Positions 10,841 through 31,009 of a DNA stretch of 64,000 bases are shown here, in pieces. Below the pieces are notes generated by a model. The model had not been told where the DNA came from. It was given only the letters and a program-made list of their open reading frames with translations, and ran no database searches. Made by a program: the position numbers and the translations under genes. Each line of letters opens with the position of its first letter. The first letter of the stretch is position 1. Location: the NCBI RefSeq assembly GCF_024494685.1, contig NZ_JANHDM010000013.1, forward strand, positions 1 to 64,000. The letters run 5' to 3'. The DNA is from Halorubrum rubrum. GTDB taxonomy: Archaea > Halobacteriota > Halobacteria > Halobacteriales > Haloferacaceae.

Positions 10841-11296
10841 GTGCATCTTGAACAAGAATCGGTCTCCGACCTTTCCGAGTCTGGTGAGAGGACACTATTC
10901 ATAGGAAGGGACAACCCGATCCGAATCAGCACCGGGCACCGCCTCCTCCACCACGATGGGAAATGTAGTCGTCCACATGGACACAACTACGAAATCTCGG
11001 TGGAGGTCACTGGTTCTCTCACCCAAGATGGCTGGGTCGTAGACAAAGGAGATATTACCTCAGTAATAGATGACTGGGACCACCGCTTCCTCCTCGAGAA
11101 GGACGACCCCCTCATCGACGCCTTCGAGCAGAGCGGCGACGGTGATTCACTCGTCGTTCTCGAACACCCACCGACCGCGGAAGTGATGGGGCTCGTCTTG
11201 GAACGAAAACTCCTCGAGACACTTCCAGAGTCAGTCTCAGACATCTCAGTAGCGGTGCGGGAGACATCGGAGCTCTGTGCGGGGGCGACACACTGA
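10841..11296 (+). CDS. queD: 6-carboxytetrahydropterin synthase (QueD)
   Basis: A 151-aa protein of the 6-pyruvoyltetrahydropterin synthase family. It has the zinc histidines H33 (in STGHRLLHHDG), H46 and H48 (HGHNYEISVEVTG), and catalytic Cys42 in GKCSRPHGH. QueD makes 6-carboxy-tetrahydropterin, the second step of preQ0 synthesis. It starts with GTG at 10841; its stop overlaps the queE ATG by 1 base. First gene of a four-gene preQ0 operon. Confidence 0.92.
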   Translation: MHLEQESVSDLSESGERTLFIGRDNPIRISTGHRLLHHDGKCSRPHGHNYEISVEVTGSLTQDGWVVDKGDITSVIDDWDHRFLLEKDDPLIDAFEQSGDGDSLVVLEHPPTAEVMGLVLERKLLETLPESVSDISVAVRETSELCAGATH

Positions 11297-12070: not shown

Positions 12071-12679
12071 ATGACGAGGACGCACTCTCAATTCGCGACT
12101 GGCGAGGTAGAATCAGACATCGACTACGAGAAGGCACAGCGGGGCGTTCGCCTCCTGTTAGAGGCCGTCGGCGAGGACCCGGACAGTAACGCGCTGACTG
12201 AGACCTGGCAGCGCCGCGTACCGGACGCCTTCGCGACACTCACCGAAGGCCAACGGGAGGCCGCGAAGCCGACGATGCGGACCTTCGACGCCGAGACGAC
12301 CGATCTCGTTGTCAAAACCACAATTCCCGTGTATTCGCTGTGTGAGCACCACTTGTTGCCGTTCTTTGGAACAGTTCATTTGGCGTATCGGCCGACAGAC
12401 GAGGTGGTAGGGCTCTCGAAGCTGACTCGGTACGTCCGCTGGCAGTCACGAAATCTCACGATGCAGGAACAGCTGACGAACGACATCGCGTCCGGACTCA
12501 AAGAGGAACTAGACGCAGCTACCGTCTTTGTCGAAATGAACGCAACGCACCTCTGTGAGGCGATGCGCGGCGTCGAGACGAGAAGCACGACCACCACCAG
12601 GGCAACTGCCGGAGAACCGACTGAGGCAGAACGTGAGCGGTTCCAAGCAGCTGTCAACCGTACGGAGGGTCAGGGATGA
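12071..12679 (+). CDS. folE: GTP cyclohydrolase I (FolE)
   Basis: A 202-aa protein with the GTP cyclohydrolase I core: SLCEHHLLPFFGTVHLAY (zinc Cys and two His), VVGLSKL, QEQLT, and the final ATHLCEAMRGV motif supplying the second zinc Cys. It forms dihydroneopterin triphosphate from GTP, the entry step to preQ0. Archaea generally use other GTP cyclohydrolase types, so a bacterial-type FolE in a queDEC operon suggests a transferred, self-contained preQ0 cassette. Confidence 0.92.
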   Translation: MTRTHSQFATGEVESDIDYEKAQRGVRLLLEAVGEDPDSNALTETWQRRVPDAFATLTEGQREAAKPTMRTFDAETTDLVVKTTIPVYSLCEHHLLPFFGTVHLAYRPTDEVVGLSKLTRYVRWQSRNLTMQEQLTNDIASGLKEELDAATVFVEMNATHLCEAMRGVETRSTTTTRATAGEPTEAERERFQAAVNRTEGQG

Positions 12680-13371
12680 GCGAGCAACGAGCGGTAATCC
12701 TGGCGTCTGGGGGAATGGATAGTGCGACCGCGGCGGCTGTCGCGCAGGATGCTGGCTACGAGTTGTACATGCTGCACACGTCCTACGGCCAGCAGACCGA
12801 GAGTAAGGAGTACGAATGTGCGCAGGCCCAGGCCGAGGCCTTCGACGCCGCAGACTTCCTCCACCTGACGACGGACCACCTCTCGAAGATCGGTGCGTCG
12901 AGTCTCACTGACGACGAGATGGACGTCGAGGAGGCAGACTTGGAGAGTGACGAGATTCCGAGCTCCTACGTACCGTTCCGGAACGCGAACCTGCTGTCGA
13001 TGGCGACGTCGTATGCAGAAGCCAACGATTGTGAGGCCGTGTTTATCGGTGCGCACAGCGAGGACTTCTCGGGGTATCCGGACTGCCGACCGGAGTTCTT
13101 CGAGGCGTTCCAGCAGGTCGTCGACGTCGGCACGAAACCGGAGACGGAGATTAGCGTCGAAGCGCCGTTTGTCGAGTTGTCGAAGACAGACATCGCCGAA
13201 CGCGGTCTCGAACTCGACGTCCCCTATGAACACACCTGGAGCTGCTACCGGGAAGAAGCACCAGCGTGTGGCACGTGTGACGCGTGTGCGTTCCGTCTCC
13301 AGGCGTTCCAAAATCTCGGCGAGCGCGATCCAATCGAATACGCCGAGCGCCCCGATTATACCGAATTATAG
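12676..13371 (+). CDS. queC: 7-cyano-7-deazaguanine synthase (QueC)
   Basis: A 231-aa ATP-dependent PP-loop enzyme. The SGGMDS motif is at residues 11-16, and the C-terminal zinc cluster is SCYREEAPACGTCDAC. It turns 7-carboxy-7-deazaguanine into preQ0, the substrate expected by the TGT/DpdA enzymes nearby. It overlaps folE by 4 bp. It has no fused amidotransferase or amidinotransferase domain, so any further change of preQ0 must come from another gene. Confidence 0.93.
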   Translation: MSEQRAVILASGGMDSATAAAVAQDAGYELYMLHTSYGQQTESKEYECAQAQAEAFDAADFLHLTTDHLSKIGASSLTDDEMDVEEADLESDEIPSSYVPFRNANLLSMATSYAEANDCEAVFIGAHSEDFSGYPDCRPEFFEAFQQVVDVGTKPETEISVEAPFVELSKTDIAERGLELDVPYEHTWSCYREEAPACGTCDACAFRLQAFQNLGERDPIEYAERPDYTEL

Positions 13372-13963: not shown

Positions 13964-14005
13964 GACAGGAACAGAAATATCTGTCACCGAGAGTTGGCTA
14001 TCAAT

Positions 14006-15160
14006 ATGTATGCTGACGATGTCGATTTCTACTCCCTCTCAGAAACCAAACAACGACGCTTGGTCCATAATAAGCGCGTTGCGACTACTGACCAACTTCT
14101 AAATGAACTGCCAAAGGGAAAGCCTGCGGTTCGAATATTTGAACGCTCTCTCGACCAATTAGTGTTGGATCAACTGGAGCAGGGTCAATACACTATCGAA
14201 GAATTAGCAAACCACTTTAGCGTACAACCCGCGGACGTTCGACGTATACTACATAAGTATCGCCGACGCGGGTCAGACGACTTTACGAACGAGAATTTCA
14301 AACTGAACCTTCTTGAGGAACGGCACGGTGTGATACGCGGTGTCGACAGTGACGGAAGGTCACTCTATTATACGCTTCAAACAATCCCATTCTTCGCTCG
14401 TGTAGTAGATCCAACGTTGATGTTTTCTCTATTGGGACTGGACGAGTATGTCGATACGCTCCCTCATATTGCCGAACATATCCCTGGTGGAAAAGTCACT
14501 GAACTGGATGAAGACTACGCCTTCGTGATCGGTGAATACTGGAATATTGACCCGGAGGAAGTGTTCGAATACTTGACTGAGTTTGACCGCGCATATGTCG
14601 ATACATCATTACTTCCGCTACCATATATTGAAGACGATGATCACTATGAACGTGTTTCTCGTCGGTTTAGGCAGGTTGAGGGGGTCTACCGTATGTTTCG
14701 TGGAACGTCAGATCATATCCAGGAAGTCGGTGAAGAATTCATAGGTCGTATCGAACAGAACCAAGTTGGAATAGCTACTTATCAAGTAATGAGTATTGAT
14801 TTCGCTGATTTTGAGTGGTATGTAGACCAGTCTGGTGACTATGTCCTTCACAACGAAATCAGCGATTGGGTAGAGCAAATAGCCCGATCGCTTCAACCCG
14901 ATGAACCTACTAAGGACATCGACGATTCGACAGAGGACACAGAGATTAATCTTCGAGATGAAATTCAATTAATCCTCTCAGAGAAACATCGAACTCCTGC
15001 CGAGATATACGAAGAACTCCCACGAGATATTCAATTGGGAACGGATAAATCAGAAGTCAAGGCAGTTCTAGAACGATTGGCCAATACAGGTGTTATCAGC
15101 AAAAAGAACGAGAAGTCGACATGTCATTATTTCCAGCGACAGGGGAAAACGTGGGAGTAG
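14006..15160 (+). CDS. HTH-containing protein, paralogue of the 411-aa protein at 27.5 kb
   Basis: A 384-aa protein (ATG at 14006; a TTG 12 bases upstream is less likely). The N-terminal 150 residues align by eye with the protein at 27518-28753: FYSLSE..RR, VFERSLDQLVLDQL, YTIEELANHF, HGVIRGVDSDG, YYTLQTIPFFARVVDPTL. The ELANHFSVQPADVRRIL segment is HTH-like, and a winged-helix-like segment closes the C-terminus (EIQLILSEKHRTPAEIYEEL). No catalytic motif. It opens the restriction-type gene set 51 bp before the 255-aa HTH gene. Confidence 0.65.
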   Translation: MYADDVDFYSLSETKQRRLVHNKRVATTDQLLNELPKGKPAVRIFERSLDQLVLDQLEQGQYTIEELANHFSVQPADVRRILHKYRRRGSDDFTNENFKLNLLEERHGVIRGVDSDGRSLYYTLQTIPFFARVVDPTLMFSLLGLDEYVDTLPHIAEHIPGGKVTELDEDYAFVIGEYWNIDPEEVFEYLTEFDRAYVDTSLLPLPYIEDDDHYERVSRRFRQVEGVYRMFRGTSDHIQEVGEEFIGRIEQNQVGIATYQVMSIDFADFEWYVDQSGDYVLHNEISDWVEQIARSLQPDEPTKDIDDSTEDTEINLRDEIQLILSEKHRTPAEIYEELPRDIQLGTDKSEVKAVLERLANTGVISKKNEKSTCHYFQRQGKTWE

Positions 15161-15211: not shown

Positions 15212-15979
15212 ATGACCCTCCAGTATGCGCGTCTCTTCCAATTACGGGCCGGCATTCAATTGATCGCAGAATCTGGCCCGATGTCCAAGAAGGAGCTTAC
15301 AGACGCACTGAGACAACGGAAAACAATCAATGCTGATGAAACCGCTACAGAAGGAGCAGACGATATTATCGAGCAACTTCGTGATGCAAATCTCATAAAA
15401 AATAGCGAAGAAGGGTATCGACTAACAGCTGAAGAGGAATTTAACGACAAGGGGGTCGTGTTAACTTATTCAGGTGAGGAAGTCGTTGGTGCAGGGGATC
15501 AGCGAGCTCAAGCAGACCGAATTCTTGCGAATATCATGTACCAACACCCGATGCTGCTCGTCCTCTCGAAATTCATCTACCGAAAAGGCCCGGTCAAGGA
15601 CTACGAAGTGATGCGGGAATTTGATGGGGAAGCGTTCATTGGTGACAAGATGAATCAATTCACAATTGACATGGGCCTCGATCTTCTGGAAGATGCCGAC
15701 GTTATTGAACCGGGTGATAATGGCTACATCCAAGGAAGATGGCCTGTCCGGCTCTTCGCACACGTTATCTACGAAGAATATTCGGATTTGATTGGAGACG
15801 GAGGAAGTATTCGAGAACCAGAACTCTTCGAGAGATTAGAAACATTATACGGGATCCCTCGAAGGACATTCGATAACTACATTAAAAGACTCCACACTGC
15901 CGGTATCGTTTCTGAAGGTAGCTACAAACAGTTGACGCTCAACGAAAGCGTACTTGAAGGAGCCAAAATCTATGAGTGA
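15212..15979 (+). CDS. winged-helix protein preceding the large ATPase
   Basis: A 255-aa protein with an N-terminal wHTH (PMSKKELTDALRQRKT), a middle linker, and a C-terminal HTH (YGIPRRTFDNYIKRLHTAGIV). Its stop overlaps the start of the large ATPase by 8 bp. It occupies the position that a DpdG-type protein has before DpdH in bacterial dpd clusters; that parallel is contextual. It is also the counterpart of the 298-aa HTH protein in the modification operon. Confidence 0.65.
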   Translation: MTLQYARLFQLRAGIQLIAESGPMSKKELTDALRQRKTINADETATEGADDIIEQLRDANLIKNSEEGYRLTAEEEFNDKGVVLTYSGEEVVGAGDQRAQADRILANIMYQHPMLLVLSKFIYRKGPVKDYEVMREFDGEAFIGDKMNQFTIDMGLDLLEDADVIEPGDNGYIQGRWPVRLFAHVIYEEYSDLIGDGGSIREPELFERLETLYGIPRRTFDNYIKRLHTAGIVSEGSYKQLTLNESVLEGAKIYE

Positions 15980-18900
15980 ACCAGCAAGCAAATTCGACGA
16001 ACTAGGGTTGGAACGAGACCCATTCTCGACCACTATCGCGGATGAGGAGATTGCGGCACAGTATAGTTTGGTCGGAAGAGATGATCAGGAGTATCGCCTA
16101 CGTGAATTCGTCCAATCGGGCATTCGTGAGCCCGACCTCATGAAGCGTCGGCTGATTTTCGGAGAATATGGGACAGGTAAGTCCCACCATCTCATCGAGT
16201 TGCGGGACGAGGTAAGAGAAGGCGTTGAGGTCGAGGGGGAAACGTACGAAGCACTAGCAGTATACGTCGGCAACTTAGGCTTGAGTATTCGTCGACTGTA
16301 TGAGAAAATTGTTGAGGAGATACTAGAAGACGAACCTAGACTTCAGGACTACGTAGAGGCACTTCCTGATGTCGAACCGGACAGTAGTGTCGACGAGGCC
16401 TATCAATATGAACGTCTGCAAGACAACGTTGCCACAAACCTTCGGAAAATCGTCACACACGCTAGGGAAGAATTAGGATACCGCTCAGTCTACCTCTTCA
16501 TCGACGAAGCAGAAGATATTGAGGCAGAAAATGACGAGCAGAAGGTACAGCGGTTTATTCGCTCGTTCCTCCACTTTGTTAACGAATTGAACACATCCGG
16601 CCTACATATTCTCCTCGGGTTCTCTCAAGGTGCGCGAATGGCAATTACCCAATACGAGGATGACGACGACTCGCTGGGTAATGCATTAGTTCAAAGGTTC
16701 CAAGGAGACGACATTTATCTCGGCGATCTTACTGAATCGGACGTCAAGGAGATGCTAATTGACCGGATGGATGTTCACCGAACGTCTAACCGTGGTGAAA
16801 TTTCACCGATTGTGGAGGACACTATCGATGTTGTAACTGAGGTTACGGGCGGCCATCCACGATCGATCCTTCAGATATACTCTGAGGCCCTCAACTACGC
16901 AGCGAAGGTAGATGCGGACAGGATTGATGGCGATGCTATCGTTTACGCTCTTAGAGATTTCACCTCTCTTGTGCGTGACGAGGATCTCCTAAGTGGAGAA
17001 GCACTCACCACACTCAAGAAGGGGCTCGAGGATGCACACCCGGACGCACGAGATGACTTCGAGCGTTTGGAGGGCCGCCTCATTGGAGAAGGAGATGCGA
17101 TTCCAGAGAACTCCTTCTCAGACGGCGTTCCTGGCGCTCTCATGAGCCCGATTACTGTTGAGGGAGAGGATGCTGGCGAAATCCGCGTCCTTGAAAAGCG
17201 TGACCGACACGGCCGATACTATTACGTTCTGAGTGAAGAGGCCAAAGACTTCCTCTTCCGCGGAAAAGGTGACGAAGGTACGGAAATACAGAAGCTCGAT
17301 CTTCAAGCAACCAATGCCCCAGATAAATACCAGAGATACCTTTCACGTGGGCTAGCGCTAGCGGTTCAATCGATGGGTAAAGGGAGCCTGCACAAGGATC
17401 CAGTCACCATCGCCTCCGGCCGGTACGAATACGCTCTTTACTTAATTGATGTTGATCGAGGGCCAGGAAAAGGAAAGCCAACTGTCGCCGTTGGGGTCTA
17501 TAACGGTCAAGAGATCCCCGTAGAATTGCTCAAGCTCTACGTCGAAGCCTACCAATCCCGGGGGGCTACCTTCGGTGCGTTGGTGAAGCAAAATCAGCAG
17601 CAATCCGCGGAGGCGAATAAGTATGTTAACGGGCTAGACAGCGAAGAGCGACAGTTTGTCACCGACCGCATTATAGAAGTCAATCTCTCTACCGAACAAC
17701 GTGATAACTTCATTTACGGCAGGTTGTTGGCTCTCGGTGATTCTGAGATTCAAGCTGAAGGAATGGTCGATGGGCACACGTTGATCTCTGAGATCGGCAT
17801 TATCGGTGGCTTACAAGAGACCTTCACTGACACCATCCTTCCATTTCCTGACAAAGTCCATCGAAATGTGATTGATCATTTAGAAAAGAACGACGCCCGG
17901 GAGTTTACGATCGGTGATTTACAGGACGAATTAGAAATACAGAGCTATAATCTAAAATCCGACCATATGATCGGTCTCAAGGACCAGAATCTAGTAGCCA
18001 AATCTGGTCAACGGTGGATTTACCCAGATATTGAGAATGATAGGCCTCCTTGGTACGAGATTTATCGACGACTCAATGAACAGGGGGCGCTAACTATGGA
18101 AGAAATCCAAGCACAGGTCACTACGGATTTTGCCCTTGGATGTTCACGTGGTGACGAGAATGCGATGATTCAGTGGTATCTGGACCATCTCCAGAGACAG
18201 AACTACGTTGAGCCCACGACAGTAGAACGGGAAGGAGAGATTCACGACGCATACGACATAGTTAGTGTCGAGGACCAGTATAATGAAGCTAGGTCCCGGG
18301 CTCAATCTAGGCTGGATGCGGCGCAGGTGCTCTACGAAGAAGCGGTTTCGCTTGACGCCAAGAGTATCAATAGCTACAAGAACCGAATTGAGGACTACAC
18401 CACTCAACTCGATCAGTTTGATGAAGTTTTCAACCCGACCCACAACGACCTGAACGAGGTTCGGGCCCTCATCGATGATATTGTGGGACTAGAGGAAGAC
18501 CTGGAAGATACTGTCTCTGACCGCAAAGAGAAGATCATCGGTAACGCAGTTTCAGTTCGGGACGATATTGACGATCTTCGACGGAAAATTTCGAAATCTG
18601 ATGTAGAGGGCTCATTCGGGTCTCAGCTTGATGACTACGATGACGAGTTGGGAGAACTGGATACGGAACTTGAGTCTCTCATTGATAACGAGCAGTATGA
18701 GCGGCTTGCGAAACGAACTGGGAGCATCGATGACCGGGTAGATACGATAGACGATGAGGTTGAGCAACTTCTGGGAGTCAAGTCGAAATGTACTGAGAAA
18801 TACAAGCAACTCCGTGACATAGCGGACAGCGCGAAAGACCATATCGACGCTATTGCAGCAGACAACTCTTCGCACGCGGAACTAGAAGAGCAACTTGAGA

Positions 18901-19364
18901 CAATTGAATCCCGATTTGACGATTACCGAGATCAGTTCAACAGTGGCGAATTCCAGGTTGCCCTCAGCACCCTCGAAGAGATTGAACCAGAGCTCAAGTC
19001 ACTCAAAGATCAGGCACAAGGGATTGAGCAGCAGCAACAACAGTATCTAAAACAGCTCGATGACCTCGACCCGGAAATATCCGACGAGGAAGGGAAAGAC
19101 CTGCTTGAAGAAGCACGGAAAACCGTAAAGAAGGGCGACTTCGCCACGGCGCCGACACTCATTGACGACCTTCGTGAACGTGCAAAAGGGCCGACTCGGC
19201 GTGAGCAATTTGTCGCTGCCTTGCGTGAGTATGATGGGAGTTTCACGAAGATCGTCACTGAGACAGACTTCAATGAGACAGAAGCGTTTAGTCAACTCAA
19301 AGATGTCTACTCGGACTCTACGAGTGACATCGAGGACATAACGGTCGTGATGACCAATGAGTAA
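15972..19364 (+). CDS. large AAA ATPase with coiled-coil C-terminus (DpdH-like role)
   Basis: A 1130-aa protein (ATG at 15972). The N-terminal ATPase has GLERDPFSTT, Walker A FGEYGTGKSHH around residues 60-70, and Walker B VYLFIDEAEDIE around 172-183. From about residue 770 to 1090 it is mostly charged coiled coil (RSRAQSRLDAAQVLYEEAV onward), like SMC- or BREX-type motor proteins. It overlaps both neighbours by 8 bp. The ATPase core resembles that of the 385-aa protein at 3.9 kb. Probably the motor or sensor of the restriction complex; function inferred. Confidence 0.75.
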   Translation: MSEPASKFDELGLERDPFSTTIADEEIAAQYSLVGRDDQEYRLREFVQSGIREPDLMKRRLIFGEYGTGKSHHLIELRDEVREGVEVEGETYEALAVYVGNLGLSIRRLYEKIVEEILEDEPRLQDYVEALPDVEPDSSVDEAYQYERLQDNVATNLRKIVTHAREELGYRSVYLFIDEAEDIEAENDEQKVQRFIRSFLHFVNELNTSGLHILLGFSQGARMAITQYEDDDDSLGNALVQRFQGDDIYLGDLTESDVKEMLIDRMDVHRTSNRGEISPIVEDTIDVVTEVTGGHPRSILQIYSEALNYAAKVDADRIDGDAIVYALRDFTSLVRDEDLLSGEALTTLKKGLEDAHPDARDDFERLEGRLIGEGDAIPENSFSDGVPGALMSPITVEGEDAGEIRVLEKRDRHGRYYYVLSEEAKDFLFRGKGDEGTEIQKLDLQATNAPDKYQRYLSRGLALAVQSMGKGSLHKDPVTIASGRYEYALYLIDVDRGPGKGKPTVAVGVYNGQEIPVELLKLYVEAYQSRGATFGALVKQNQQQSAEANKYVNGLDSEERQFVTDRIIEVNLSTEQRDNFIYGRLLALGDSEIQAEGMVDGHTLISEIGIIGGLQETFTDTILPFPDKVHRNVIDHLEKNDAREFTIGDLQDELEIQSYNLKSDHMIGLKDQNLVAKSGQRWIYPDIENDRPPWYEIYRRLNEQGALTMEEIQAQVTTDFALGCSRGDENAMIQWYLDHLQRQNYVEPTTVEREGEIHDAYDIVSVEDQYNEARSRAQSRLDAAQVLYEEAVSLDAKSINSYKNRIEDYTTQLDQFDEVFNPTHNDLNEVRALIDDIVGLEEDLEDTVSDRKEKIIGNAVSVRDDIDDLRRKISKSDVEGSFGSQLDDYDDELGELDTELESLIDNEQYERLAKRTGSIDDRVDTIDDEVEQLLGVKSKCTEKYKQLRDIADSAKDHIDAIAADNSSHAELEEQLETIESRFDDYRDQFNSGEFQVALSTLEEIEPELKSLKDQAQGIEQQQQQYLKQLDDLDPEISDEEGKDLLEEARKTVKKGDFATAPTLIDDLRERAKGPTRREQFVAALREYDGSFTKIVTETDFNETEAFSQLKDVYSDSTSDIEDITVVMTNE

Positions 19365-22146
19365 TGCAGCGATGGGACAGCATGAGCACCTTGATGCTGT
19401 CAAGGAGATGTGGGAGGTTCTAGTTGACGGGGAAGACCATGATGACCTCCAACAGCATGTCCTTAGATGGGTTGATAATGCTTGTAAGCAGCAGATCAAC
19501 GCCGGTAACTACGATTCTACGGTAGCACTGTCCGACCTGTTCGATCGGTTTCACCGAACCTTCGTACTCGGTGAAAATGAACCGGAGACTGGCGAAAATA
19601 TCGATATTACCTACGTATTCCCTGCTCAGCTAACTACCAAAACGGCCAGCCAGCTACTCTTCCAACACGTCATCGACAAACTTGTCGAAAGGGATGTCTT
19701 ACTCTATGTCTACGACAAACAACGCGTTCGGAGTCGTGTAGCAGAAGTCACTAGGTACTTCGCACTACTTCGTCAGCGGTTCGCTGACCGAAGTGGATTT
19801 GAGCATGCTCCCAGTCTCACGAAGATGGTCAAGATGGACATACAGTCCCGTGAGAAGCCTAAATGGGGCGACCAAGGAATTGACTTGGGTGACAAAATTA
19901 GAGAGATTTTACAGCGCGCAAGTACCGGCGAACCTGCTTCTGAGTTTGGGTCTGTCGGGCGTACAGACTGGCGAGAGGCCACGAATGATGCGCTCACCCT
20001 GATATACAGGCTTTGTAAGCGCCGGGGTATGACCGGGTTAGCTGCATTCCAGGGGAGATCCCTCGATGAACTCTATCGCCGGGCAGTTACCGAACGAAAC
20101 GAAGAACGGGCCCACGTTATTACCGCGAGCACCGGCGGTGGTAAGACAGAGGCCTTCTTGTTCCCGATACTCGCATACAGCCTGACGGCGAACCATGACA
20201 ACATTCGGGTAGGCGGTGTTGACGCTGTTCTTGCATACCCCCGAAAAGATCTGTGTGATAACCAGTTTGAGCGCATCGTCGAGTATCTATACGAGATTGA
20301 ACAGATTATCGCTGCTGACGACGAACTGCCCTATGATTCGCTCCCGATAACAGTTGCTCTCCAACACGGTAGTGCAAGCCAATCCGAGATCAGTTGCCCC
20401 GTTGACGGCTGTGATGGGGGAATGCCGACCGATGAAATGGTCTGTGACAAGGATCCCGCGCATAAGGCTGACTTTGCCCGATCAGATAAGGGAGCCACAG
20501 CCGACATCATCGTAGTCACTCCCGATACGCTTCATCGACGGTTGATGGATCACCGGGGCTACGATCAGTTCTGGAAACACGCGTCACCTCCAAAGTTCGT
20601 TGTCCTCGACGAGGTTCACGTCTATACGAACCAGTACGGAATGCATGTCGCAAACGTAATGCGGCGGTTCCAAGCTGCGATGCGTGAAGTCGATCCTGAC
20701 CAACAACCCAACTTGGTTGCCTCCAGTGCAACAATATCAAACGCTGAACAGTTTACAGAGGCAATATTTGGGGCGCCCAGTGCTAGAGAGATCACTCCCC
20801 GAGGGAAGAACGAAGACATCCCATGGAAGGAGACGAGTAAGGAATTTAGAAAAGAGAGTGAGATTGAAGAAATCGGGTGGGAATATCTCGTATTTATAAA
20901 GGCTACAGACCCCCGAGAGGTCCAGGTTCCACAGGGTGAAGCAAAGTACAAACCTCGGCGTGAATGGGGACCAGAGGACTTCGAAGAGACGAACGTAACG
21001 AATCTCTCGTCCATGATTCAGGTCGCCTTCACGATGTACCATACGATCCTCAAACAGGAGTCTGACGAGGGTCAACTGAAGAACAAAATTCTGGGGTTCG
21101 TTGACTCGATCGATTCCGTCAAAAGACTAGGTGATTATATCCAAGACGCAGAGTCTGGACGAGGTGTCGAGGGTCAGGAGTTATTTACTCTCCGTACCCC
21201 TGATGCTTTCCTGCGAGACGAAGATGAACCAGGGACGAATCCAGACTGCCCCAAGCACCAGTTCAGATCGAATGCAGCATCCCATGAACGGGCGGTCTGT
21301 GAACCACTTCCTCCGAACAAGAACCTGAATCCATGCCCGGTCTATGAGGCAGGTGAGTGCTGGTGGACGATGACCGACGAGCTTGACCTTGAGCCGATGG
21401 ATGTCTACCTGCACAAAAGTGGCCGAACCGAGACTCCGGACGGGACCCGCGTTGAAGACGACAATTGGGACCTTATGGTCACTACTAGCGCACTGGAAGT
21501 TGGGTTCGATCATCCCGGCATAATTGGAACCTTCCAGTACCGAGCACCGATGAACATCCCCGGATTCGTACAACGGAAAGGGAGAGGAGGTCGTGATCCT
21601 GATGATCAACCAATCTCAGTAGTCGTTCTCGGGTCACGTCCTGAAGACGCATTCTACTTCCACCATGAAAACCTGCTCTCTGACCCAGATGAGAGGTACC
21701 TCGAAATCAATCTGGATGAAGAGAACAGGTTTGTTCGAACAGAGCACCTCGTCTCTGCCATCTTCGATTACTTGAACGTCACTGACAACGAAACCGCGGA
21801 CGAGATATACCGAAGATTAGACATTGAGGAGTTAGACGAGAAATTCACACATGAGCAGGATGAGATCACTAACTGGCTCCGCAAGGCGTTCCCGATGGTG
21901 CCCGAGGAGCAGATTACTGCCGTGATTGATGAAATTGGAGACTACATCAATCTAACACAGGCCCCGTTAACACCTGCAAGTGTAGGTGGAGGGGACATCC
22001 AAGAATTCTGGGAGGCAGCACGCTTCCCTAGAGGGACTCGTCAGGCCGATCTCGAGGAGAGCCTTGATGATCTGAAGTTCAAGCGCCGGCTTTTCCAGGA
22101 GATTGCGGCGGGGAATCTCGACTTGGAGAACACTTCCAACAAATGA
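19357..22146 (+). CDS. DEAD-type superfamily 2 helicase (DrmA/DpdJ-like)
   Basis: A 929-aa SF2 helicase. Walker A TASTGGGKTEAFLFP is near residues 256-270 and the DEVH box (VVLDEVHVYTN) near 416-426. A SSATISN motif III follows, and C-terminal motifs are VTTSALEVGFDHP and QRKGRGGRDPDD near 738. A small Cys cluster (CPVDGCDGG...CDKDPAH) interrupts domain 1. Helicases with this C-terminal pattern pair with DUF1998 proteins in DISARM and related systems, and the next gene is such a protein. Probably it unwinds or translocates unmodified invading DNA. Confidence 0.85.
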   Translation: MSNAAMGQHEHLDAVKEMWEVLVDGEDHDDLQQHVLRWVDNACKQQINAGNYDSTVALSDLFDRFHRTFVLGENEPETGENIDITYVFPAQLTTKTASQLLFQHVIDKLVERDVLLYVYDKQRVRSRVAEVTRYFALLRQRFADRSGFEHAPSLTKMVKMDIQSREKPKWGDQGIDLGDKIREILQRASTGEPASEFGSVGRTDWREATNDALTLIYRLCKRRGMTGLAAFQGRSLDELYRRAVTERNEERAHVITASTGGGKTEAFLFPILAYSLTANHDNIRVGGVDAVLAYPRKDLCDNQFERIVEYLYEIEQIIAADDELPYDSLPITVALQHGSASQSEISCPVDGCDGGMPTDEMVCDKDPAHKADFARSDKGATADIIVVTPDTLHRRLMDHRGYDQFWKHASPPKFVVLDEVHVYTNQYGMHVANVMRRFQAAMREVDPDQQPNLVASSATISNAEQFTEAIFGAPSAREITPRGKNEDIPWKETSKEFRKESEIEEIGWEYLVFIKATDPREVQVPQGEAKYKPRREWGPEDFEETNVTNLSSMIQVAFTMYHTILKQESDEGQLKNKILGFVDSIDSVKRLGDYIQDAESGRGVEGQELFTLRTPDAFLRDEDEPGTNPDCPKHQFRSNAASHERAVCEPLPPNKNLNPCPVYEAGECWWTMTDELDLEPMDVYLHKSGRTETPDGTRVEDDNWDLMVTTSALEVGFDHPGIIGTFQYRAPMNIPGFVQRKGRGGRDPDDQPISVVVLGSRPEDAFYFHHENLLSDPDERYLEINLDEENRFVRTEHLVSAIFDYLNVTDNETADEIYRRLDIEELDEKFTHEQDEITNWLRKAFPMVPEEQITAVIDEIGDYINLTQAPLTPASVGGGDIQEFWEAARFPRGTRQADLEESLDDLKFKRRLFQEIAAGNLDLENTSNK

Positions 22147-24275
22147 GCGATCAAACTCCTCTCTCGGAAGCAGATGACCTAACGCAAGAAGAGCGATTGC
22201 TGGCACGACTTAATGGCCTGATTCAATACCAATCTGACCTACTCGATAAGGTCCAGCGTAATCGTTTCCGTCCATATTGCCATATACCAGACCTCTTCGA
22301 ACTTGATCCAGAGGCAACAAGGCCATTTAGCGTTCCTGGTACGTTTATCTCTGAGCAGGTCGGCGGTAACATCAGTGTTGTCAACGCGAATGGCGGCTTT
22401 TTGGCGAATGAGCCGCTTGATCTTATGTTGGGGAGCTTTCTGCCCGGCGGCTACAAACGCCGATGGGAATTCGACCTATGGACTGGCGATTTCGGGCCTT
22501 CATCGAGAAGAGGATTTGCAGATATTAACGACGGGCTGCGCATTCGAACATCCAGCCAACTGTCCGAGATTCTACCACAGAGTGAAGAAGAGCGGTACAC
22601 ACCGTTTGAGCACCCTGTAGATGAGGTAAGCGTCTACATTCCCCAACAGTTCATCGTCTGGAATCCGAGCGTGGGTGAGAACGGAGTGCATACGCACTAC
22701 TATTGGGATTCTGCGAACGGGGTTGTAAGGAACCAGAAACCAGAGGACGTCCCAGAAGAGGAGCTCACGACGCTGAAAAGTGATCCGACCTCGCAGTTCC
22801 TCTGGTTTAAGCACCCCCTTGGACGAGGCGACAGTCCAGAGTCACTGGATTTGTCGACGATGACCGGTGGCCTTATTGAGCAGGGAGAGTTCAACAACGA
22901 CGCGACATTTCTTAAATCGTACTATGCAACCCTGTTGACGTTATACGGCGAAGAGAGGACATTCTCAGAGGTAATTCGCTATCGTCACGGGGAAGATGAC
23001 GCCACTGCATTCGTCGGTAGCCGTGAGGAAAGCCAGGTTCTGATGTTTGATATAGACCGGTCGATAGTCACTGAGTTACTTGACAATGTCTTCCAGAAAG
23101 AAACGCCACTTTTCCGAGACCTCCAATTTTCGCTCTTATACCGTCGATTATGGGATCGCCTGTTCTTCCAAGAGGAGGCTCTCGAGCACGCATTTAGCGT
23201 TACCCCGTTCTATCGTGCCCTAATTGCGGTCGACTACCTCTTTTCGATGGGGTCTGACGGGCCAGACTCGCTATTTGAGGCCAGTGTTAACGACATTGAA
23301 GCACGTCTTCCGAGCCTCTTACCGTCTAGGGACCGACGGTTAGGATTGCTTGATTACGATGACGGGGAAATCTCGACTTATGAGACGCTTCTGGATGAAT
23401 ATGGAGATTCGTTGGAATCCATCATTGAGGAGTGTGCTGACGGCGAGTCAGTGAGGCAATTTGCTGAGCATGTCTTTATCCATTCACTCAAACATGGACT
23501 TGCTTCGTGGGCGGCAGAATACAGTGCCGGAGGTGGTGACTTCGAAGCTTGGTATGACGTGAACTTCGTAGAGACGAGCGGCGAAACCGTTGAGATCGGT
23601 ATCTATGATTCAATTCAAGGCGGTGCTGGTGTGAGCCGTGAAGTCTTCGATGACTTACGCGAGCTATCCGATACTGAACTGCTAAGCGGGCTTGCTGAAC
23701 AGTCGAGCTGCCATATTGGTGCTACAGAAGAGACGTTGGTTTCCTTGCTGAAGGAATACTCTGGAGAGTACGTGTTTGACCTCGCCCAAACGAACGAGAT
23801 TGCATCTGGGCGCGACGTACCCGAGTTCAATGATGTGTTTCAGGACCTTGGAGTCGACTTCTCGTACGCTCGGTACGATGACGTCAAACCGCTACTTCAC
23901 CGACGCCTTAACCGAATTGCCGAAACTCGGGAAATGGCCCGCTTCTATAGCGTTGTTGCTGAGACATATACGACAACGAAGGAACAACTAAACCGCACAC
24001 CACGGCCGGTAGACTTAGTATTTGCTTTGGAGGACCGAACGTTCTTCGACACCCGGGTCAGAGAAACGTATCGTCGGTTTGCGAATAGACGTTCCCAGCG
24101 CCGCGATCTCAGTGAGTTGGCTGAACGAATAGAAGAGGTAACCAAGCAGTGTATTCATGCATGCCCGGACTGTCTAAAACGGGATTCCTGCACACACCAG
24201 TATCGGTATCAAGAACAAATGCTCGACCGCCGTCTCCTCGCACGCGCACTAGCGGTACTTGATGGAGGCAAATGA
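22143..24275 (+). CDS. DUF1998 / DrmB-like helicase partner
   Basis: A 710-aa protein. The C-terminal part carries DUF1998-type features: HSLKHGLASWAAEYSAGG, IGIYDSIQGGAGVSREVFDDL, and a zinc cluster CIHACPDCLKRDSC followed by DRRLLARAL at the end. DUF1998 proteins form a unit with their partner helicase (DrmA-DrmB in DISARM; fused in MrfA). The 4-bp overlap with the helicase gene supports a split version. The N-terminal half (QYQSDLLDKVQRNRFRPYCHIPDLFEL) fits DrmB start regions. Confidence 0.75.
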   Translation: MSDQTPLSEADDLTQEERLLARLNGLIQYQSDLLDKVQRNRFRPYCHIPDLFELDPEATRPFSVPGTFISEQVGGNISVVNANGGFLANEPLDLMLGSFLPGGYKRRWEFDLWTGDFGPSSRRGFADINDGLRIRTSSQLSEILPQSEEERYTPFEHPVDEVSVYIPQQFIVWNPSVGENGVHTHYYWDSANGVVRNQKPEDVPEEELTTLKSDPTSQFLWFKHPLGRGDSPESLDLSTMTGGLIEQGEFNNDATFLKSYYATLLTLYGEERTFSEVIRYRHGEDDATAFVGSREESQVLMFDIDRSIVTELLDNVFQKETPLFRDLQFSLLYRRLWDRLFFQEEALEHAFSVTPFYRALIAVDYLFSMGSDGPDSLFEASVNDIEARLPSLLPSRDRRLGLLDYDDGEISTYETLLDEYGDSLESIIEECADGESVRQFAEHVFIHSLKHGLASWAAEYSAGGGDFEAWYDVNFVETSGETVEIGIYDSIQGGAGVSREVFDDLRELSDTELLSGLAEQSSCHIGATEETLVSLLKEYSGEYVFDLAQTNEIASGRDVPEFNDVFQDLGVDFSYARYDDVKPLLHRRLNRIAETREMARFYSVVAETYTTTKEQLNRTPRPVDLVFALEDRTFFDTRVRETYRRFANRRSQRRDLSELAERIEEVTKQCIHACPDCLKRDSCTHQYRYQEQMLDRRLLARALAVLDGGK

Positions 24276-27200
24276 AGATGATCTATCCGATTCAGGACAT
24301 CGTTGACGACGAGACGCACTATGGCCAGGAAGTCACTATCCGATGTACAGTCGTTGGTGACCCAAGAAGAGGGCAACAAGGCGGAGACAAGACACTGTAT
24401 CCAGTTCGGGTGTCTGGTCAGTTCGAAGGTGATGCCTTCCTCTCGATCTGGCATGAGGATCCTGCTTGGACGGACTCGTTCGGGCGAACCGCATCGTATC
24501 TTCGTGAAATAATCGACGAGGTGCCTTTACAGCAAGACGAGTCGGTCGTCGTCAGGGGGATTCCTAACACACACAACGGCAAGTGGTATTTCAACGTCAC
24601 CGGAATCATAATCCGAGACCCGGATACCGCAATCGGCAAAAGTGAGATGCGCTCCGCTAGCGAGTGCCCCCGTATTTACGACCTTCTCTACGAGAAGAAC
24701 GTATATTCACCCGGTAGGTACGATCTTTCTCCCGGAGCAATCAAAGGTAGAATTGTCCACACATTAGTAGAACACGCCATCGAAGAAGGGGGCAAAGGTC
24801 AATTCAAAGGTGGATGGTCGGAAGCTCAAGTTGAGGCGTCTCTTGAAGAGCTAATTGAGTCAGAGTATTCTATCGAGATGGCTCTGTGTCGGTTGGCATG
24901 GGTGAGCCCCAACCGAATTCGGGAGAACGCGTTAGATGCTGCTACTCGTCTTCTGACAGACGACGAATTTACAAATCGAATCGCTTCAGCGACAGACGTT
25001 AGTGCAGAAGTAGGCCTATCTGCCTCTGTCGGCTTTAATGGCCGCGTTGACCTAATCATCGATGGGACCCCCTATGATCTCAAAACCAACTACAAGCTGA
25101 CCGATAAGACACGGAATCATCACCGATTTCAGCTCCGGGTCTATCTCCTAGCATTCCTCCTCGAAACTCTTGAGACGGGAGAGCGTCTTCATGATCGAAT
25201 TGACAAAGGGGTCGGCGGCTATCTCGTGTATCCGAACCTTGCGAACGAATCGAGCGTCGTGTTGGAAGAAGTCGAATTGCGGCGCCGCGATGTAGAAGAC
25301 ATTCTTTCTCTCCGAAATGAGGCATCTGTTCTTCGCGATGGATTCGGTGTGCCGACGACTTACGGTCGGGATTGTACTGGCTGTACGTTCAAGTCACCGA
25401 CAACCGACCAAGAGGAAAATGAGATTCTTCCATCACCTTGTCAATACTACTGTCAGTCTGAGCGCCGTTGGCCGTGCTTTGAATCAGACGATGAAGGGAA
25501 CATCATATCCCAGTGTCCGCTTTTCGACGATTGTGACCAACGACTCGAATTCCGAGATCCCGCTGTCACCGACCATTACACGGGGCTTCGTCAGGGACTG
25601 AACACTGAGCGAGACCATCGGAAACGATTAGGCTACGAACTTGAGCAATTAGCTCCAGAAACACTGTCAGAGGCAGGGTTACGAATCCCTGATCTCAAGC
25701 TTAACGCCTTAGAGGGCCAACGAAGGATGGTCTTCACGTCAGATGCAGGGCTAGTTCCGTCCTTTACCCCAGGTTCGGGCGTACGTCTCATGCAGACCGG
25801 CACAGAATACTATCAAGAAGCCACATACTATGGCCGGGTTGAGAACAAGTATGTCTTCCAGCTGAAATCAACGCCCAATTCGGCCTTCCTTGATCCTACG
25901 GAGGCGTATGAAGCCGTCCGTACCGTCGCCGCTGATTCTCTACCACGTGAGCTGTTGTCACAACTGGACTACGCTCAGCGAGGAGAGGTATCACCCCTCC
26001 TTGAAACGACAGGAAAGGCCGGCGATAACGAGGACAGTCTTGACCCTTCGGACCTAAATTCTCTTTCCGAGTACACCGACGCAAAGGAATTATATCTGGA
26101 TGTTCCAGTCCGTCGCGAGCGGACTACGCTCGTTACTGATATTGTTACAAAACTTGCCACGCAGCAGTATCCAAGCCCCGCTGGTGGCGAAGAGATACCT
26201 GACGATGAACAACGCGCGTTAATCCTCTGTACGCGGCCTGAAATGACCGACTCGGTCGAAGAGCGACTTTCATCAGTCGAAGGGGCGACTAGAATGGACG
26301 GATTCGCTGGTGGAGCGACGACGGGTCTTACTGGAACGTCTGATGGGCACGAGATTTATGAGGGGCTTCGCGACGCATCTGTCGTGGTTTCATCGGCACG
26401 CTATGCGCTTAGTGAACAGGTATTCCACGCTATGCGAGATGGTGATGAGTCGGTTCGGCCCCATACTGACAAATTCTTCGACACGATCGTAATTGTGGGT
26501 GCGGAAAGTCTTGCAGAACCCCAGTTCCATTTCCTCCAGATTCTCGGCGATCGAGTAGCGGCAATTGGTGACACTCGACGGTCTGGTCCTGAGATTGTCA
26601 GTGGGGAGGCTAGAGAGGCCCGTCTTGACGAGGCGTATTTTAACCGTCTATACCGGCGGTTCGCGAATGTTGAGAGCGACGACAGTCAGAGCATTCAGGT
26701 GAAAGCAGAACTCACTCGTACAATGCAATCTGCATTTTCGGGGCTGGAACTTGACGCTGAGACTATTGACGGAAGTTTCGAATTTAGAGATACGGATGGA
26801 GCAATAGCAACGGCCATCGGTGAAACCTCACTAGAGTATCAAGTACCAACATCCACTGAAGAAGACGAAACCCGCTTCATCCGGCTGGAACCAGTCGAAC
26901 AAGTTGATGCAGTCCATATCTCTCAGTCTCTACAACAACTTAGAACCCTTGACGCGAGCGCACTAACGTTCGGCGAGACATACACAATCCAGGACATCAG
27001 ATTCAAAGTCCGGACCAGTAATCCTATTGATAGCGATCATCATCGTCTGAAGGTCAGTATCCCCGTACATGCGACACCATACCTCCATCAGCGCCTGACA
27101 CAGAATAAAGCCGAAGCTGAAAAGGTAGCTGAAGTTTGTACAAACGTCTCTCCAGATTTGGTTGTTACTCCCTTTGTCGCCCATGCAAATGCCATTCGAG

Positions 27201-27445
27201 AAGAGTTAGAAGAAATTGGGAAAGACATAGCGGTTCATCTCCCCGATCAGCTATCTGGAACTCATGTAGACTCAGCTGTAGTCAGTCTCGCCGTTACAGG
27301 CGAAGAACGAGTGGTCACTCCGCCCGTGAGTGATATTGAGCAACTCTACACCTGCTTCAACTGTGCACAAGACGTTACATTAGTTGGCGATCGAGAAACT
27401 TTGGAACGGAACTCACTCATCAGCCGGTTGATTGAATCTACCTGA
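24272..27445 (+). CDS. OB-fold + Cas4/RecB-like nuclease + degenerate SF1 helicase fusion
   Basis: A 1057-aa protein, probably the DNA-cutting subunit. Residues ~15-115 look like an OB fold. A PD-(D/E)XK nuclease follows: RIVHTLVEHAIEEG, GRVDLIIDG near 257-265, YDLKTNYK near 268-275. A Cas4-like cysteine set (CTGC, CQYYC, CPLFDDC) lies between about 368 and 420. The C-terminal half resembles a DNA2-type helicase, with DTIVIVGAESLAEPQ near 737 where active enzymes have a DEA(S) box, and no Walker A seen, so this half is probably inactive. It overlaps the DUF1998 gene by 4 bp. Bacterial Dpd and DISARM use a PLD nuclease instead. Confidence 0.75.
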   Translation: MKMIYPIQDIVDDETHYGQEVTIRCTVVGDPRRGQQGGDKTLYPVRVSGQFEGDAFLSIWHEDPAWTDSFGRTASYLREIIDEVPLQQDESVVVRGIPNTHNGKWYFNVTGIIIRDPDTAIGKSEMRSASECPRIYDLLYEKNVYSPGRYDLSPGAIKGRIVHTLVEHAIEEGGKGQFKGGWSEAQVEASLEELIESEYSIEMALCRLAWVSPNRIRENALDAATRLLTDDEFTNRIASATDVSAEVGLSASVGFNGRVDLIIDGTPYDLKTNYKLTDKTRNHHRFQLRVYLLAFLLETLETGERLHDRIDKGVGGYLVYPNLANESSVVLEEVELRRRDVEDILSLRNEASVLRDGFGVPTTYGRDCTGCTFKSPTTDQEENEILPSPCQYYCQSERRWPCFESDDEGNIISQCPLFDDCDQRLEFRDPAVTDHYTGLRQGLNTERDHRKRLGYELEQLAPETLSEAGLRIPDLKLNALEGQRRMVFTSDAGLVPSFTPGSGVRLMQTGTEYYQEATYYGRVENKYVFQLKSTPNSAFLDPTEAYEAVRTVAADSLPRELLSQLDYAQRGEVSPLLETTGKAGDNEDSLDPSDLNSLSEYTDAKELYLDVPVRRERTTLVTDIVTKLATQQYPSPAGGEEIPDDEQRALILCTRPEMTDSVEERLSSVEGATRMDGFAGGATTGLTGTSDGHEIYEGLRDASVVVSSARYALSEQVFHAMRDGDESVRPHTDKFFDTIVIVGAESLAEPQFHFLQILGDRVAAIGDTRRSGPEIVSGEAREARLDEAYFNRLYRRFANVESDDSQSIQVKAELTRTMQSAFSGLELDAETIDGSFEFRDTDGAIATAIGETSLEYQVPTSTEEDETRFIRLEPVEQVDAVHISQSLQQLRTLDASALTFGETYTIQDIRFKVRTSNPIDSDHHRLKVSIPVHATPYLHQRLTQNKAEAEKVAEVCTNVSPDLVVTPFVAHANAIREELEEIGKDIAVHLPDQLSGTHVDSAVVSLAVTGEERVVTPPVSDIEQLYTCFNCAQDVTLVGDRETLERNSLISRLIEST

Positions 27446-27517: not shown

Positions 27518-28753
27518 ATGATTCCGACAGACGAATTCTATGACAAGCCCGAGGTAGAAAGGCAAGAGCTTGTGGACGCGGGCCACGTCGTGACCGACGG
27601 CAAGATTGCAGAAACAGTACCTTCAAACAGACGTGGCGGAATTCACGTTTTTGAGGAACCAGTCACCGATCTCGTTGTCGATCGCCTCAAGGGTGCCCGA
27701 TACACCGCAAATGAACTCGCTCCAGACTTCCCCATCGACAAGGAAGAGCTAGATGATTTGTTCAATTGGATGAAATATGAGCCAATGGACCTTCTTACGG
27801 ACCACTTCGGTGTACTAAGGGTCGTGGATACCGAGGGCGCAGAATATGTCTATACTGTAGAAGCAATACCATTTTCGGCACGGTGTATCGACCCAACTCT
27901 AAGTGGATACTTGTTAGACGCTAACGATCGATGTCCGATTTCCCGTCCTGAAATCACAACGAAGCGCAACTCTACTTCTCGGGATAAATACGTAGATCAA
28001 GCAATCGATTACTGGGGAATCCCAGAAGACGAGATAACAATGGATCTCGATGATCAAGTCGGATTCGCAAAATCCACCCTCGGACCTTTGCCGGTTATTA
28101 GCGATTTGTCGGACGCAGAACGCGTTATAGAGCGATTCCAGAGCACTGAGGACAGTTACCGCCGGAAACAGCATACAGTCCAGAGCGTTAAAAAGAGCAT
28201 TAGCTTCCACAAATCTCGTTGCCGGCGCAATCCCTCACTAGGTGCATTTCAGTCGTTCAGTCTATTTTTGATGGATGTCAGCGAATATTCATCAATTGAG
28301 AACGACAGTCAGCTACGGGAGTTAGTTACGCAGGGAGGACAGGTTCTCTATCGGTGCCTGTACGGGAATCTTTGGCCAGGCGGATCAACCGCTTGGCGAC
28401 CGTTCGAAATCACGATTCAGGACAGAAGTATAGATACCTTTGACCGTCGAGTAATCGATATTGTAGAGCAACAACCCACATCAAACGGACAATTATCCGA
28501 CCGTTGGGGTTTTTCAGATGGGAGAGAGGTCTGGGATTACCTTCAGTCTGAACTCAGTCAGTATGTAACCCGGAACACCGACAAATTCGCTTGTGCAACC
28601 GAATCAGCCCGTCGTTACGTAAGTGGACTCGAGCAAGACGGCAAGATCGCTCTCAGTAAAGAGCCTCCCAGGATCCCAGGTAAAGGAAGAATCACCCTGG
28701 CAGTCACAGACTCCCAGCAAAATGATACCAGCGGCGTTAACTGGAACAGGTGA
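27518..28753 (+). CDS. paralogue of the 384-aa protein, last gene of the restriction set
   Basis: A 411-aa protein. Its first ~150 residues align by eye with the protein at 14006-15160: FYDKPEVERQELV, VFEEPVTDLVVDRL, YTANELAPDF, FGVLRVVDTEG, YTVEAIPFSARCIDPTL. The C-terminal 250 residues are diverged, with a winged-helix-like segment (TSNGQLSDRWGFSDGREVWDYL). The two paralogues bracket the ATPase-helicase-nuclease operon, 72 bp after the nuclease gene. Role unknown; paired specificity or regulatory subunits are plausible. Confidence 0.65.
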   Translation: MIPTDEFYDKPEVERQELVDAGHVVTDGKIAETVPSNRRGGIHVFEEPVTDLVVDRLKGARYTANELAPDFPIDKEELDDLFNWMKYEPMDLLTDHFGVLRVVDTEGAEYVYTVEAIPFSARCIDPTLSGYLLDANDRCPISRPEITTKRNSTSRDKYVDQAIDYWGIPEDEITMDLDDQVGFAKSTLGPLPVISDLSDAERVIERFQSTEDSYRRKQHTVQSVKKSISFHKSRCRRNPSLGAFQSFSLFLMDVSEYSSIENDSQLRELVTQGGQVLYRCLYGNLWPGGSTAWRPFEITIQDRSIDTFDRRVIDIVEQQPTSNGQLSDRWGFSDGREVWDYLQSELSQYVTRNTDKFACATESARRYVSGLEQDGKIALSKEPPRIPGKGRITLAVTDSQQNDTSGVNWNR

Positions 28754-30799: not shown

Positions 30800-31009
30800 A
30801 CATCCGGGTCCGACCGGGAGAATCTTCAACGTATCTGGAAATGTGAAGGGCTGGTTCTGTTGCACCCTCGTTTGATTGTAGATTTGGGTATGATCGGTAA
30901 GTCCAGAGGAGGTATACAGCAACTCGCCGCTGTTATTCGCCGGAGGGACCGAACGCACTGATAAGGAACCCGCACCAACTTAATATAAGAACCAGACAGG
31001 ACCTATATC

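What the first reader, a model, noticed from the sequence alone, without database searches (positions are those of the whole stretch)
19357..27445. DrmA/DrmB-like pair joined to an OB + PD-(D/E)XK + dead-helicase fusion
The helicase and DUF1998 genes resemble the DISARM DrmA-DrmB core, but the expected PLD nuclease is replaced by a 1057-aa protein combining OB fold, Cas4/RecB-type nuclease with a cysteine cluster, and a DNA2-like helicase half lacking a P-loop and with GAES in place of a DEA box. This is a different effector design for the same core.
Basis: partly seen in the sequence, partly recalled or inferred. Interest (0 to 1): 0.7.

Follow-up and report, generated by a model that had tools for sequence, protein, structure and literature searches.

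The report
Haloarchaeal 7-deazaguanine defence with motorless Dna2
A plasmid island in a salt-loving archaeon appears to mark its own DNA with an unusual guanine-like base and to attack unmarked DNA with a two-piece DNA motor plus a Dna2-type nuclease whose own motor has been switched off in every known relative, a variant of a known defence family that has not been tested in the laboratory.

Summary
Three overlapping genes (19357-27445) encode a YprA-type SF2 helicase (D1), a separate DUF1998 canopy subunit (D2), and a 1057-aa OB + PD-(D/E)XK + SF1-like protein (D3). D3 lacks a P-loop and has GAE in place of DEA. The DISARM reading does not hold. D1 scores far better as DpdJ than DrmA and groups with bacterial DpdJ. 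The island has no PLD nuclease or methyltransferase, but carries DpdA, a second TGT and the preQ0 genes. D3 is not a new fusion: it has full Dna2 architecture, with nuclease residues and eight cysteines invariant and the ATPase motifs lost in all 17 sequences. D1 and D3 occur in the same 16 of 391 haloarchaeal genomes, all with DpdA. The nearest published system is BRIGADE (Bell et al. 2025 preprint), which mentions PD-(D/E)xK nucleases in passing. The window's clade lacks BRIGADE's ARMADA-like helicase (0 of 8 genomes) and has an AAA-coiled-coil protein instead. Most likely this is the restriction arm of a 7-deazaguanine DNA-modification system in which D1-D2 drives the DNA and D3 cuts it: a new variant of a known kind. 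Modification, cleavage and defence remain untested.

The parts
19357..22146 (+). D1: YprA/DpdJ-branch SF2 helicase, 929 aa; Walker A TASTGGGKT (256-264), DEVH (418-421), two conserved cysteine clusters (C347/C352/C363; C631/C648/C660/C668)
22143..24275 (+). D2: separate OB-CON-DUF1998 'canopy' subunit, 710 aa, with 4-Cys site C670/C674/C677/C683
   Evidence: MZB 1.8e-4; cysteines conserved; the only solved structures matched with Z>=8 are MrfA (Z 10.0, 8.4) and DrmB (Z 8.7), next 4.8; homologous to the C-terminal half of a split bacterial DpdJ
24272..27445 (+). D3: Dna2-type nuclease with inactivated SF1 helicase, 1057 aa: OB (1-115), PD-(D/E)XK nuclease (116-360), Cys-rich staple (361-430), stalk/beta-barrel (431-531), pseudo-RecA1 (590-800), pseudo-RecA2 (920-1057)
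15954..19364 (+). C3: AAA ATPase (P-loop GEYGTGKS, FIDEAED) + long coiled coil, 1136 aa; its C-terminal half is homologous to the ~358-aa protein found upstream of D1 in the other clade
15212..15979 (+). C2: 255-aa winged-helix-like protein; ORF overlaps C3, probably one operon C2-C3-D1-D2-D3
13994..15160 (+). C1: 388-aa wHTH-like protein, paralogue of E1
27518..28753 (+). E1: 411-aa DUF5797-containing protein, paralogue of C1 (26% over 290 aa, 7e-25)
12676..13371 (+). QueC (preQ0 synthesis)
   Evidence: PF06508 4e-76
12071..12679 (+). FolE, GTP cyclohydrolase I
   Evidence: PF01227 6.5e-52
11296..12069 (+). QueE, radical SAM 7-carboxy-7-deazaguanine synthase
   Evidence: PF04055 2.8e-17; annotated QueE in the near-identical plasmid
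10841..11296 (+). QueD (PTPS family)
   Evidence: PF01242 1.2e-19
7077..9980 (-). DpdA, 967 aa, DNA guanine transglycosylase with a C-terminal DpdC/DUF6884-like domain
   Evidence: NCBIfam DpdA 275.7 bits (cut-off 200); PADLOC DpdA 6.7e-74 and DpdC 1.2e-7; motifs shared with bacterial DpdA
5903..6937 (-). second TGT-family protein, 344 aa, arcTGT-like catalytic domain
   Evidence: PF01702 1.8e-26
5010..5906 (-). 298-aa protein of unknown family that travels with the second TGT
3853..5010 (-). BrxC/BrxD-type AAA ATPase, 385 aa, travels with the second TGT
   Evidence: PF10923 1.7e-16

Best explanation
The three genes are the restriction (effector) arm of a plasmid-borne haloarchaeal DNA-modification and restriction island. 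Modification arm (inferred from gene families): FolE-QueD-QueE-QueC make preQ0, and DpdA, perhaps helped by the second TGT with its 298-aa and BrxD-like partners, exchanges guanine for a 7-deazaguanine base in self DNA; the DpdC-like domain may convert it further. Effector arm: D1 is the ATP-driven SF2 motor and D2 its detached DUF1998 canopy, together a split DpdJ-type helicase, which loads on and unwinds DNA lacking the mark. D3 takes the place of the Dpd PLD nuclease. It is a Dna2 derivative whose Fe-S-stapled PD-(D/E)XK site cuts the single strand threaded through it, while its SF1 domains have lost ATPase function and now serve as a DNA-holding or docking scaffold fed by D1-D2. C3 (AAA + coiled coil) with C2 probably gates assembly or activation. 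Shown by computation: gene content, intact and lost motifs, fold matches, strict co-occurrence. Inferred: the modified base, self/non-self discrimination, strand feeding, and the C3 role.
For: Context: DpdA, preQ0 genes and second TGT within about 15 kb, same arrangement on the Halorientalis litorea plasmid. D1 is the DpdJ branch by HMM and tree (D1 clade joined to bacterial DpdJ, UFBoot 100; apart from ARMADA-like and DrmA). D2 matches only MrfA and DrmB canopies. D3: best Foldseek hits are Dna2 5ean/5eax/5eaw (2.9e-30); profile match to chromosomal haloarchaeal Dna2 over both halves (98.6%, 1e-15). Nuclease residues G159/H163/E167, D260, D/E269-x-K271, Q287/Y291 and cysteines 132, 368, 371, 390, 394, 402, 415, 421 are conserved throughout. 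Motif I GPPGTGKT is replaced by (D/N)(V/L)PxxxxR and motif II DEAxQ by G(A/G)E in all 17 sequences, yet the pseudo-helicase is under purifying selection (dN/dS 0.105). D1 and D3 occur in the same 16 of 391 genomes, all 16 with DpdA, which is in only 55 of 391 (hypergeometric 3e-15). All 16 also keep an ordinary Dna2 elsewhere, so D3 is not the housekeeping copy.
Against: No modified base, cleavage or virus protection has been measured. DpdA occurs without D1-D2-D3 in 39 genomes, so the modification does not require this effector. The model has low confidence exactly in the Cys-rich stretch (pLDDT < 50 at 357-438), so the Fe-S site is by sequence pattern only. PbeABCD, another archaeal modification-dependent module, was reported to block virus replication without cleavage (PMC6459918), so nuclease action cannot be taken for granted. 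The co-occurrence figure ignores shared ancestry and recent plasmid transfer (six near-identical copies).
Confidence: 0.7

Rival explanations
1. DISARM variant: D1-D2 are DrmA-DrmB and D3 replaces the DrmC PLD nuclease.
For: Helicase and DUF1998 subunit are separate adjacent genes followed by a nuclease, as in DISARM; D2's model matches DrmB (Z 8.7).
Against: DrmA scores far below DpdJ; DrmA-like proteins exist in 41 of 292 haloarchaeal genomes but not in this one; the tree separates D1 from them; no methyltransferase among the island proteins scanned; bacterial Dpd also has a split DpdJ.
Confidence: 0.04
2. The island is simply BRIGADE (Bell et al. 2025) with a PD-(D/E)xK nuclease, and nothing important distinguishes it.
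For: Haloarchaeal host, 7-deazaguanine cluster, Dpd-branch YprA and a PD-(D/E)xK nuclease are all in the BRIGADE description. Seven of the eight other D1-D2-D3 genomes do carry the ARMADA-like helicase, some beside a DpdH homologue.
Against: BRIGADE is defined by an ARMADA-like YprA helicase; none at 1e-30 in this genome or in the seven others of its clade. These eight instead share C3, essentially absent from the other clade.
Confidence: 0.25
3. D3's dead SF1 fold is a scanner: like AddB/RecC, whose inactivated helicase domains read Chi, it reads the single strand fed by D1-D2 and licenses cleavage only where the 7-deazaguanine mark is missing (a stronger form of the best explanation).
For: AddB/RecC precedent of an inactivated SF1 domain co-opted as ssDNA scanner (PMC4824097); the dead fold is conserved and selected; a discrimination step is needed and no other reader is evident in D1-D3.
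Against: No residue-level evidence for base reading; Dna2's helicase domain may simply be needed to hold DNA (PMC4716839); C1-C3 and the 298-aa protein are equally possible readers.
Confidence: 0.2
4. Repair or replication role: D3 is a plasmid-encoded end-processing nuclease unrelated to restriction.
For: Dna2 ancestry; nearby plasmid replication genes (Cdc6, PolB).
Against: Always operon-linked to the DpdJ-type helicase and limited to DpdA-bearing genomes; these genomes already hold Dna2; the DpdJ branch of YprA helicases is defence-associated (PMC12458937).
Confidence: 0.06

Closest known systems
BRIGADE (Bell et al. 2025 preprint, PMC12458937)
   Same: Halophilic archaea only, 7-deazaguanine biosynthesis cluster, a Dpd-branch YprA helicase, PLD or occasionally PD-(D/E)xK nuclease
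   Different: No ARMADA-like YprA helicase in the genome; AAA-coiled-coil protein C3 instead; the preprint's main text does not mention Dna2 (0 occurrences) or an inactivated motor in this nuclease
Bacterial Dpd (7-deazapurine in DNA) systems
   Same: DpdA and preQ0 genes; DpdJ-type helicase followed directly by the nuclease gene; split DpdJ also in Deinococcus taeanensis (L085)
   Different: No DpdK PLD nuclease, no recognisable DpdB/D/E/F/G/H in the island; nuclease is a Dna2 derivative; DUF1998 4-Cys site kept
DISARM
   Same: Separate helicase and DUF1998 genes followed by a nuclease gene
   Different: Helicase not in the DrmA branch; no PLD DrmC, no methyltransferase
Dna2 (eukaryotic, archaeal, Geobacillus Bad)
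   Same: OB, Fe-S-type PD-(D/E)XK nuclease, beta-barrel/stalk, SF1 1A/2A in the same order; nuclease motifs and four Fe-S-type cysteines
   Different: ATPase motifs lost; four further invariant cysteines
AddB / RecC (AddAB, RecBCD)
   Same: Inactivated SF1 helicase fold kept as a working part; AddB also pairs it with an Fe-S nuclease (own knowledge for the latter)
   Different: UvrD-like rather than Upf1/Dna2-like fold; partner motor is SF1, here SF2

Membership tests
DISARM | DrmA-branch helicase | tested here: not met
   DpdJ 3e-55 vs DrmA 3.6e-21; tree; no DrmA at 1e-40 in G000
DISARM | Separate DUF1998 subunit (DrmB-like) | tested here: met
   D2 matches DrmB Z 8.7 and MrfA Z 10.0
DISARM | DrmC PLD nuclease | tested here: not met
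   No PLD among island proteins; genome PLDs lie on other contigs
DISARM | DNA methyltransferase | tested here: not met
   None among the island proteins scanned
Dpd | DpdA transglycosylase | tested here: met
   275.7 bits, cut-off 200
Dpd | preQ0 synthesis genes | tested here: met
   FolE, QueD, QueE, QueC
Dpd | DpdJ helicase | tested here: inconclusive
   Groups with bacterial DpdJ in the tree but 176.5 bits against an NCBIfam cut-off of 800, and split in two
Dpd | DpdK PLD nuclease | tested here: not met
Dpd | DpdB, D, E, F, G, H | tested here: not met
   No PADLOC match in the other island proteins; C3 vs DpdH only 61% over part of the AAA core
Dpd | 7-deazaguanine in DNA | not testable with these tools
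   needs LC-MS of DNA
BRIGADE type I | Haloarchaeal, 7-deazaguanine cluster, Dpd-branch YprA, PLD or PD-(D/E)xK nuclease | tested here: met
BRIGADE type I | ARMADA-like YprA homologue | tested here: not met
   0 of 8 window-clade genomes at 1e-30; 7 of the 8 others positive
Dna2 | OB + PD-(D/E)XK + beta-barrel + SF1 domain order | tested here: met
   Foldseek 5ean 2.9e-30; VIA-align 629 residues over 20-1057, Z 19.0, rmsd 24.8 (domains placed differently)
Dna2 | Nuclease catalytic residues | tested here: met
   H163, D260, D/E269, K271, Q287, Y291
Dna2 | 4Fe-4S cluster | tested here: inconclusive
   Cysteine pattern conserved; cluster itself needs spectroscopy; model poor there
Dna2 | Functional Walker A / Walker B motor | tested here: not met
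   Motifs I and II lost in 17 of 17

The most novel reading that the evidence does not exclude
A Dna2 enzyme lost its own motor and was rebuilt into a restriction effector: a foreign SF2 motor (split DpdJ) feeds single-stranded DNA through it, and the dead SF1 domains act as a reader that lets the nuclease fire only where 7-deazaguanine is absent, a restriction analogue of Chi scanning by AddB/RecC.
Probability: 0.18. Interest if true: 0.8.

Novelty: new variant of a known kind. Interest (0 to 1): 0.52.

Why it matters
It moves the finding from DISARM to the poorly understood 7-deazaguanine defence family, where how self DNA is told from foreign DNA is not established. It identifies a compact, plasmid-mobile effector operon with a clear division of labour (one live motor, one dead motor, one nuclease) that could be moved into Haloferax volcanii and dissected. 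It also gives a case of a conserved pseudo-helicase in a Dna2 lineage, which lets one ask what an SF1 fold is kept for once ATP hydrolysis is gone.

Tried and rejected
PbeABCD: recalled as a haloarchaeal module of similar size; rejected on reading, since its parts are a PLD-helicase, a CxC-type ABC ATPase, a DndE-like and a small protein. BREX-related capture (BRC) systems with a TGT: share only the TGT. C3 or C2 as DpdH/DpdG/DpdI: C3 vs DpdH 61% over 113 columns of the AAA core only, C2 no match; the DpdH homologue is instead in the other clade's ARMADA-linked operon (99.7%). C3's coiled coil matching the 358-aa protein could have been coiled-coil bias: a reversed-alignment control fell to 0.9% and both share a conserved tail, so homology was kept. 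D3 against the SF1 half fused to DpdJ in Methylobacterium/Skermanella: no profile match above 8%, so common origin is not claimed. VIA-align lists were dominated by the helicase half (433-1057), so the nuclease fold rests on full-length Foldseek Dna2 hits, Pfam PDDEXK_1 and residue conservation. A literature search for Dna2 + haloarchaea + defence found nothing. Supplementary tables of the BRIGADE preprint could not be read here.

Full report
Check of the observation. The three ORFs exist at the stated coordinates and overlap by 4 bp each. Pfam gives DEAD/Helicase_C for D1, an MZB (DUF1998) remnant for D2, and PDDEXK_1 plus Dna2 for D3. D1 has an intact Walker A (TASTGGGKT) and DEVH in all orthologues. 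D3 has no P-loop.

Surroundings. The window is the start of contig C4 (111 kb) of a 3.2 Mb haloarchaeal genome and is GC-poorer over the island (mostly 0.46-0.53, against 0.55-0.67 further on). Upstream lie queD-queE-folE-queC, a 967-aa DpdA with a C-terminal DpdC/DUF6884-like domain, a second TGT, a 298-aa unknown and a BrxC/D-type ATPase. A 99%-identical island sits on a 140-kb Halorientalis litorea plasmid, and near-identical copies (94-99% in D3) occur in Haloarcula, Halorubrum, Halovenus and Haloterrigena, so the island moves between genera and families.

What D1-D2 are. D1 matches DpdJ models much better than DrmA models. In a tree of 34 helicase cores rooted on haloarchaeal DrmA, all D1 proteins form one clade joined to bacterial DpdJ with support 100, apart from the ARMADA-like helicases. 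D2's AlphaFold model (pLDDT 75.6) matches only MrfA and DrmB above Z 8 (Foldseek E-values alone are weak), and its sequence matches the second half of a split DpdJ in Deinococcus taeanensis, whose operon runs DpdE-DpdF-hyp-DpdH-hyp-helicase-hyp-PLD. D1-D2 is therefore a split DpdJ-type helicase with D3 in the nuclease position.

What D3 is. The AlphaFold model (pLDDT 76) finds mouse Dna2 as top hits (2.9e-30). Profile comparison with ordinary chromosomal haloarchaeal Dna2 aligns both nuclease and helicase halves (98.6%, 1e-15) and places GPPGTGKT opposite the DVPVRRER segment and DEAAQ opposite GAESL. In 17 sequences the nuclease motifs and eight cysteines do not vary, while motifs I and II are degenerate in every one. 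Cysteines 132/368/371/390 are in the order expected for the Dna2/Cas4/AddB Fe-S staple; 394/402/415/421 are extra. The pseudo-helicase evolves under about the same constraint as the nuclease (dN/dS 0.105 against 0.093, one pair of sequences). All 16 genomes keep a separate chromosomal Dna2.

Distribution. Among 391 haloarchaeal genomes D1 is in 16 and full-length D3 in the same 16. DpdA is in 55 and includes all 16 (hypergeometric 3e-15 without correction for ancestry). The 16 fall in two clades. In the window's clade (8 genomes) D1 is preceded by C3, an AAA ATPase with a long coiled coil, found only there apart from two marginal hits, and no ARMADA-like YprA is found in any of the eight genomes. 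In the other clade D1 is preceded by a 358-aa protein homologous to C3's C-terminal half (98.5%, reversed control 0.9%), and 7 of 8 genomes hold an ARMADA-like YprA helicase, in some beside a DpdH homologue. The constant unit is thus coiled-coil protein - D1 - D2 - D3.

Mechanism. By analogy with MrfA/DrmAB (D1-D2; PMC12458937) and Dna2 (single strand threaded through an Fe-S-stapled nuclease ring; PMC4716839), the simplest working model is that D1-D2 supplies translocation and D3 supplies cutting. D3's dead SF1 domains could hold the strand, dock the motor, or scan the strand as AddB/RecC do (PMC4824097). The mark read is presumably a 7-deazaguanine base. None of these steps has been tested.

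Comparison. Bell et al. (PMC12458937) describe BRIGADE, haloarchaeal Dpd-like systems with two YprA helicases and a PLD or occasionally PD-(D/E)xK nuclease. The second clade here fits BRIGADE type I; the window's clade fails its ARMADA-like criterion. Their main text does not mention Dna2; their supplement could not be read. Hence: new variant of a known kind.

Noticed in passing
window 7077-9980 (-): DpdA carries its DpdC/DUF6884-like domain at the C-terminus, whereas cyanobacterial DpdA (L089 120-2216, L083 712-2856) begins with a similar-looking domain, and several haloarchaeal loci have it as a separate ~240-aa gene: a movable domain.
   Followed up: partly
window 3853-6937 (-): A second TGT (344 aa), a 298-aa unknown and a BrxC/D-type AAA ATPase travel together beside DpdA; possibly a targeting module replacing DpdB.
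   Followed up: no
L084 6721-13242 and L090 6868-13209: Methylobacterium and Skermanella plasmids encode a DpdJ-type YprA helicase fused at its N-terminus to an SF1B (AAA_11/AAA_12) helicase with intact motifs, next to genes in DpdG/H/I order.
   Followed up: partly
L034 1806-12741 (-): In BRIGADE-type loci the ~1000-1170-aa protein beside the ARMADA-like helicase is a DpdH homologue (hhalign 99.7%, 7e-27).
   Followed up: partly
window 30113-30958 (-): An SRAP/SOS-response-associated peptidase homologue (abasic-site ssDNA binder) sits just downstream of the island in the window and in two near-identical copies; a link to base exchange is possible but untested.
   Followed up: no
window 13994-15160 and 27518-28753: Paralogous wHTH-like proteins C1 and E1 bracket the effector operon (26% identity, 7e-25).
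   Followed up: partly
G030:C7 18349-21567 and 135196-138432 (L049-L052): One genome carries two diverged D1-D2-D3 modules on the same contig.
   Followed up: no
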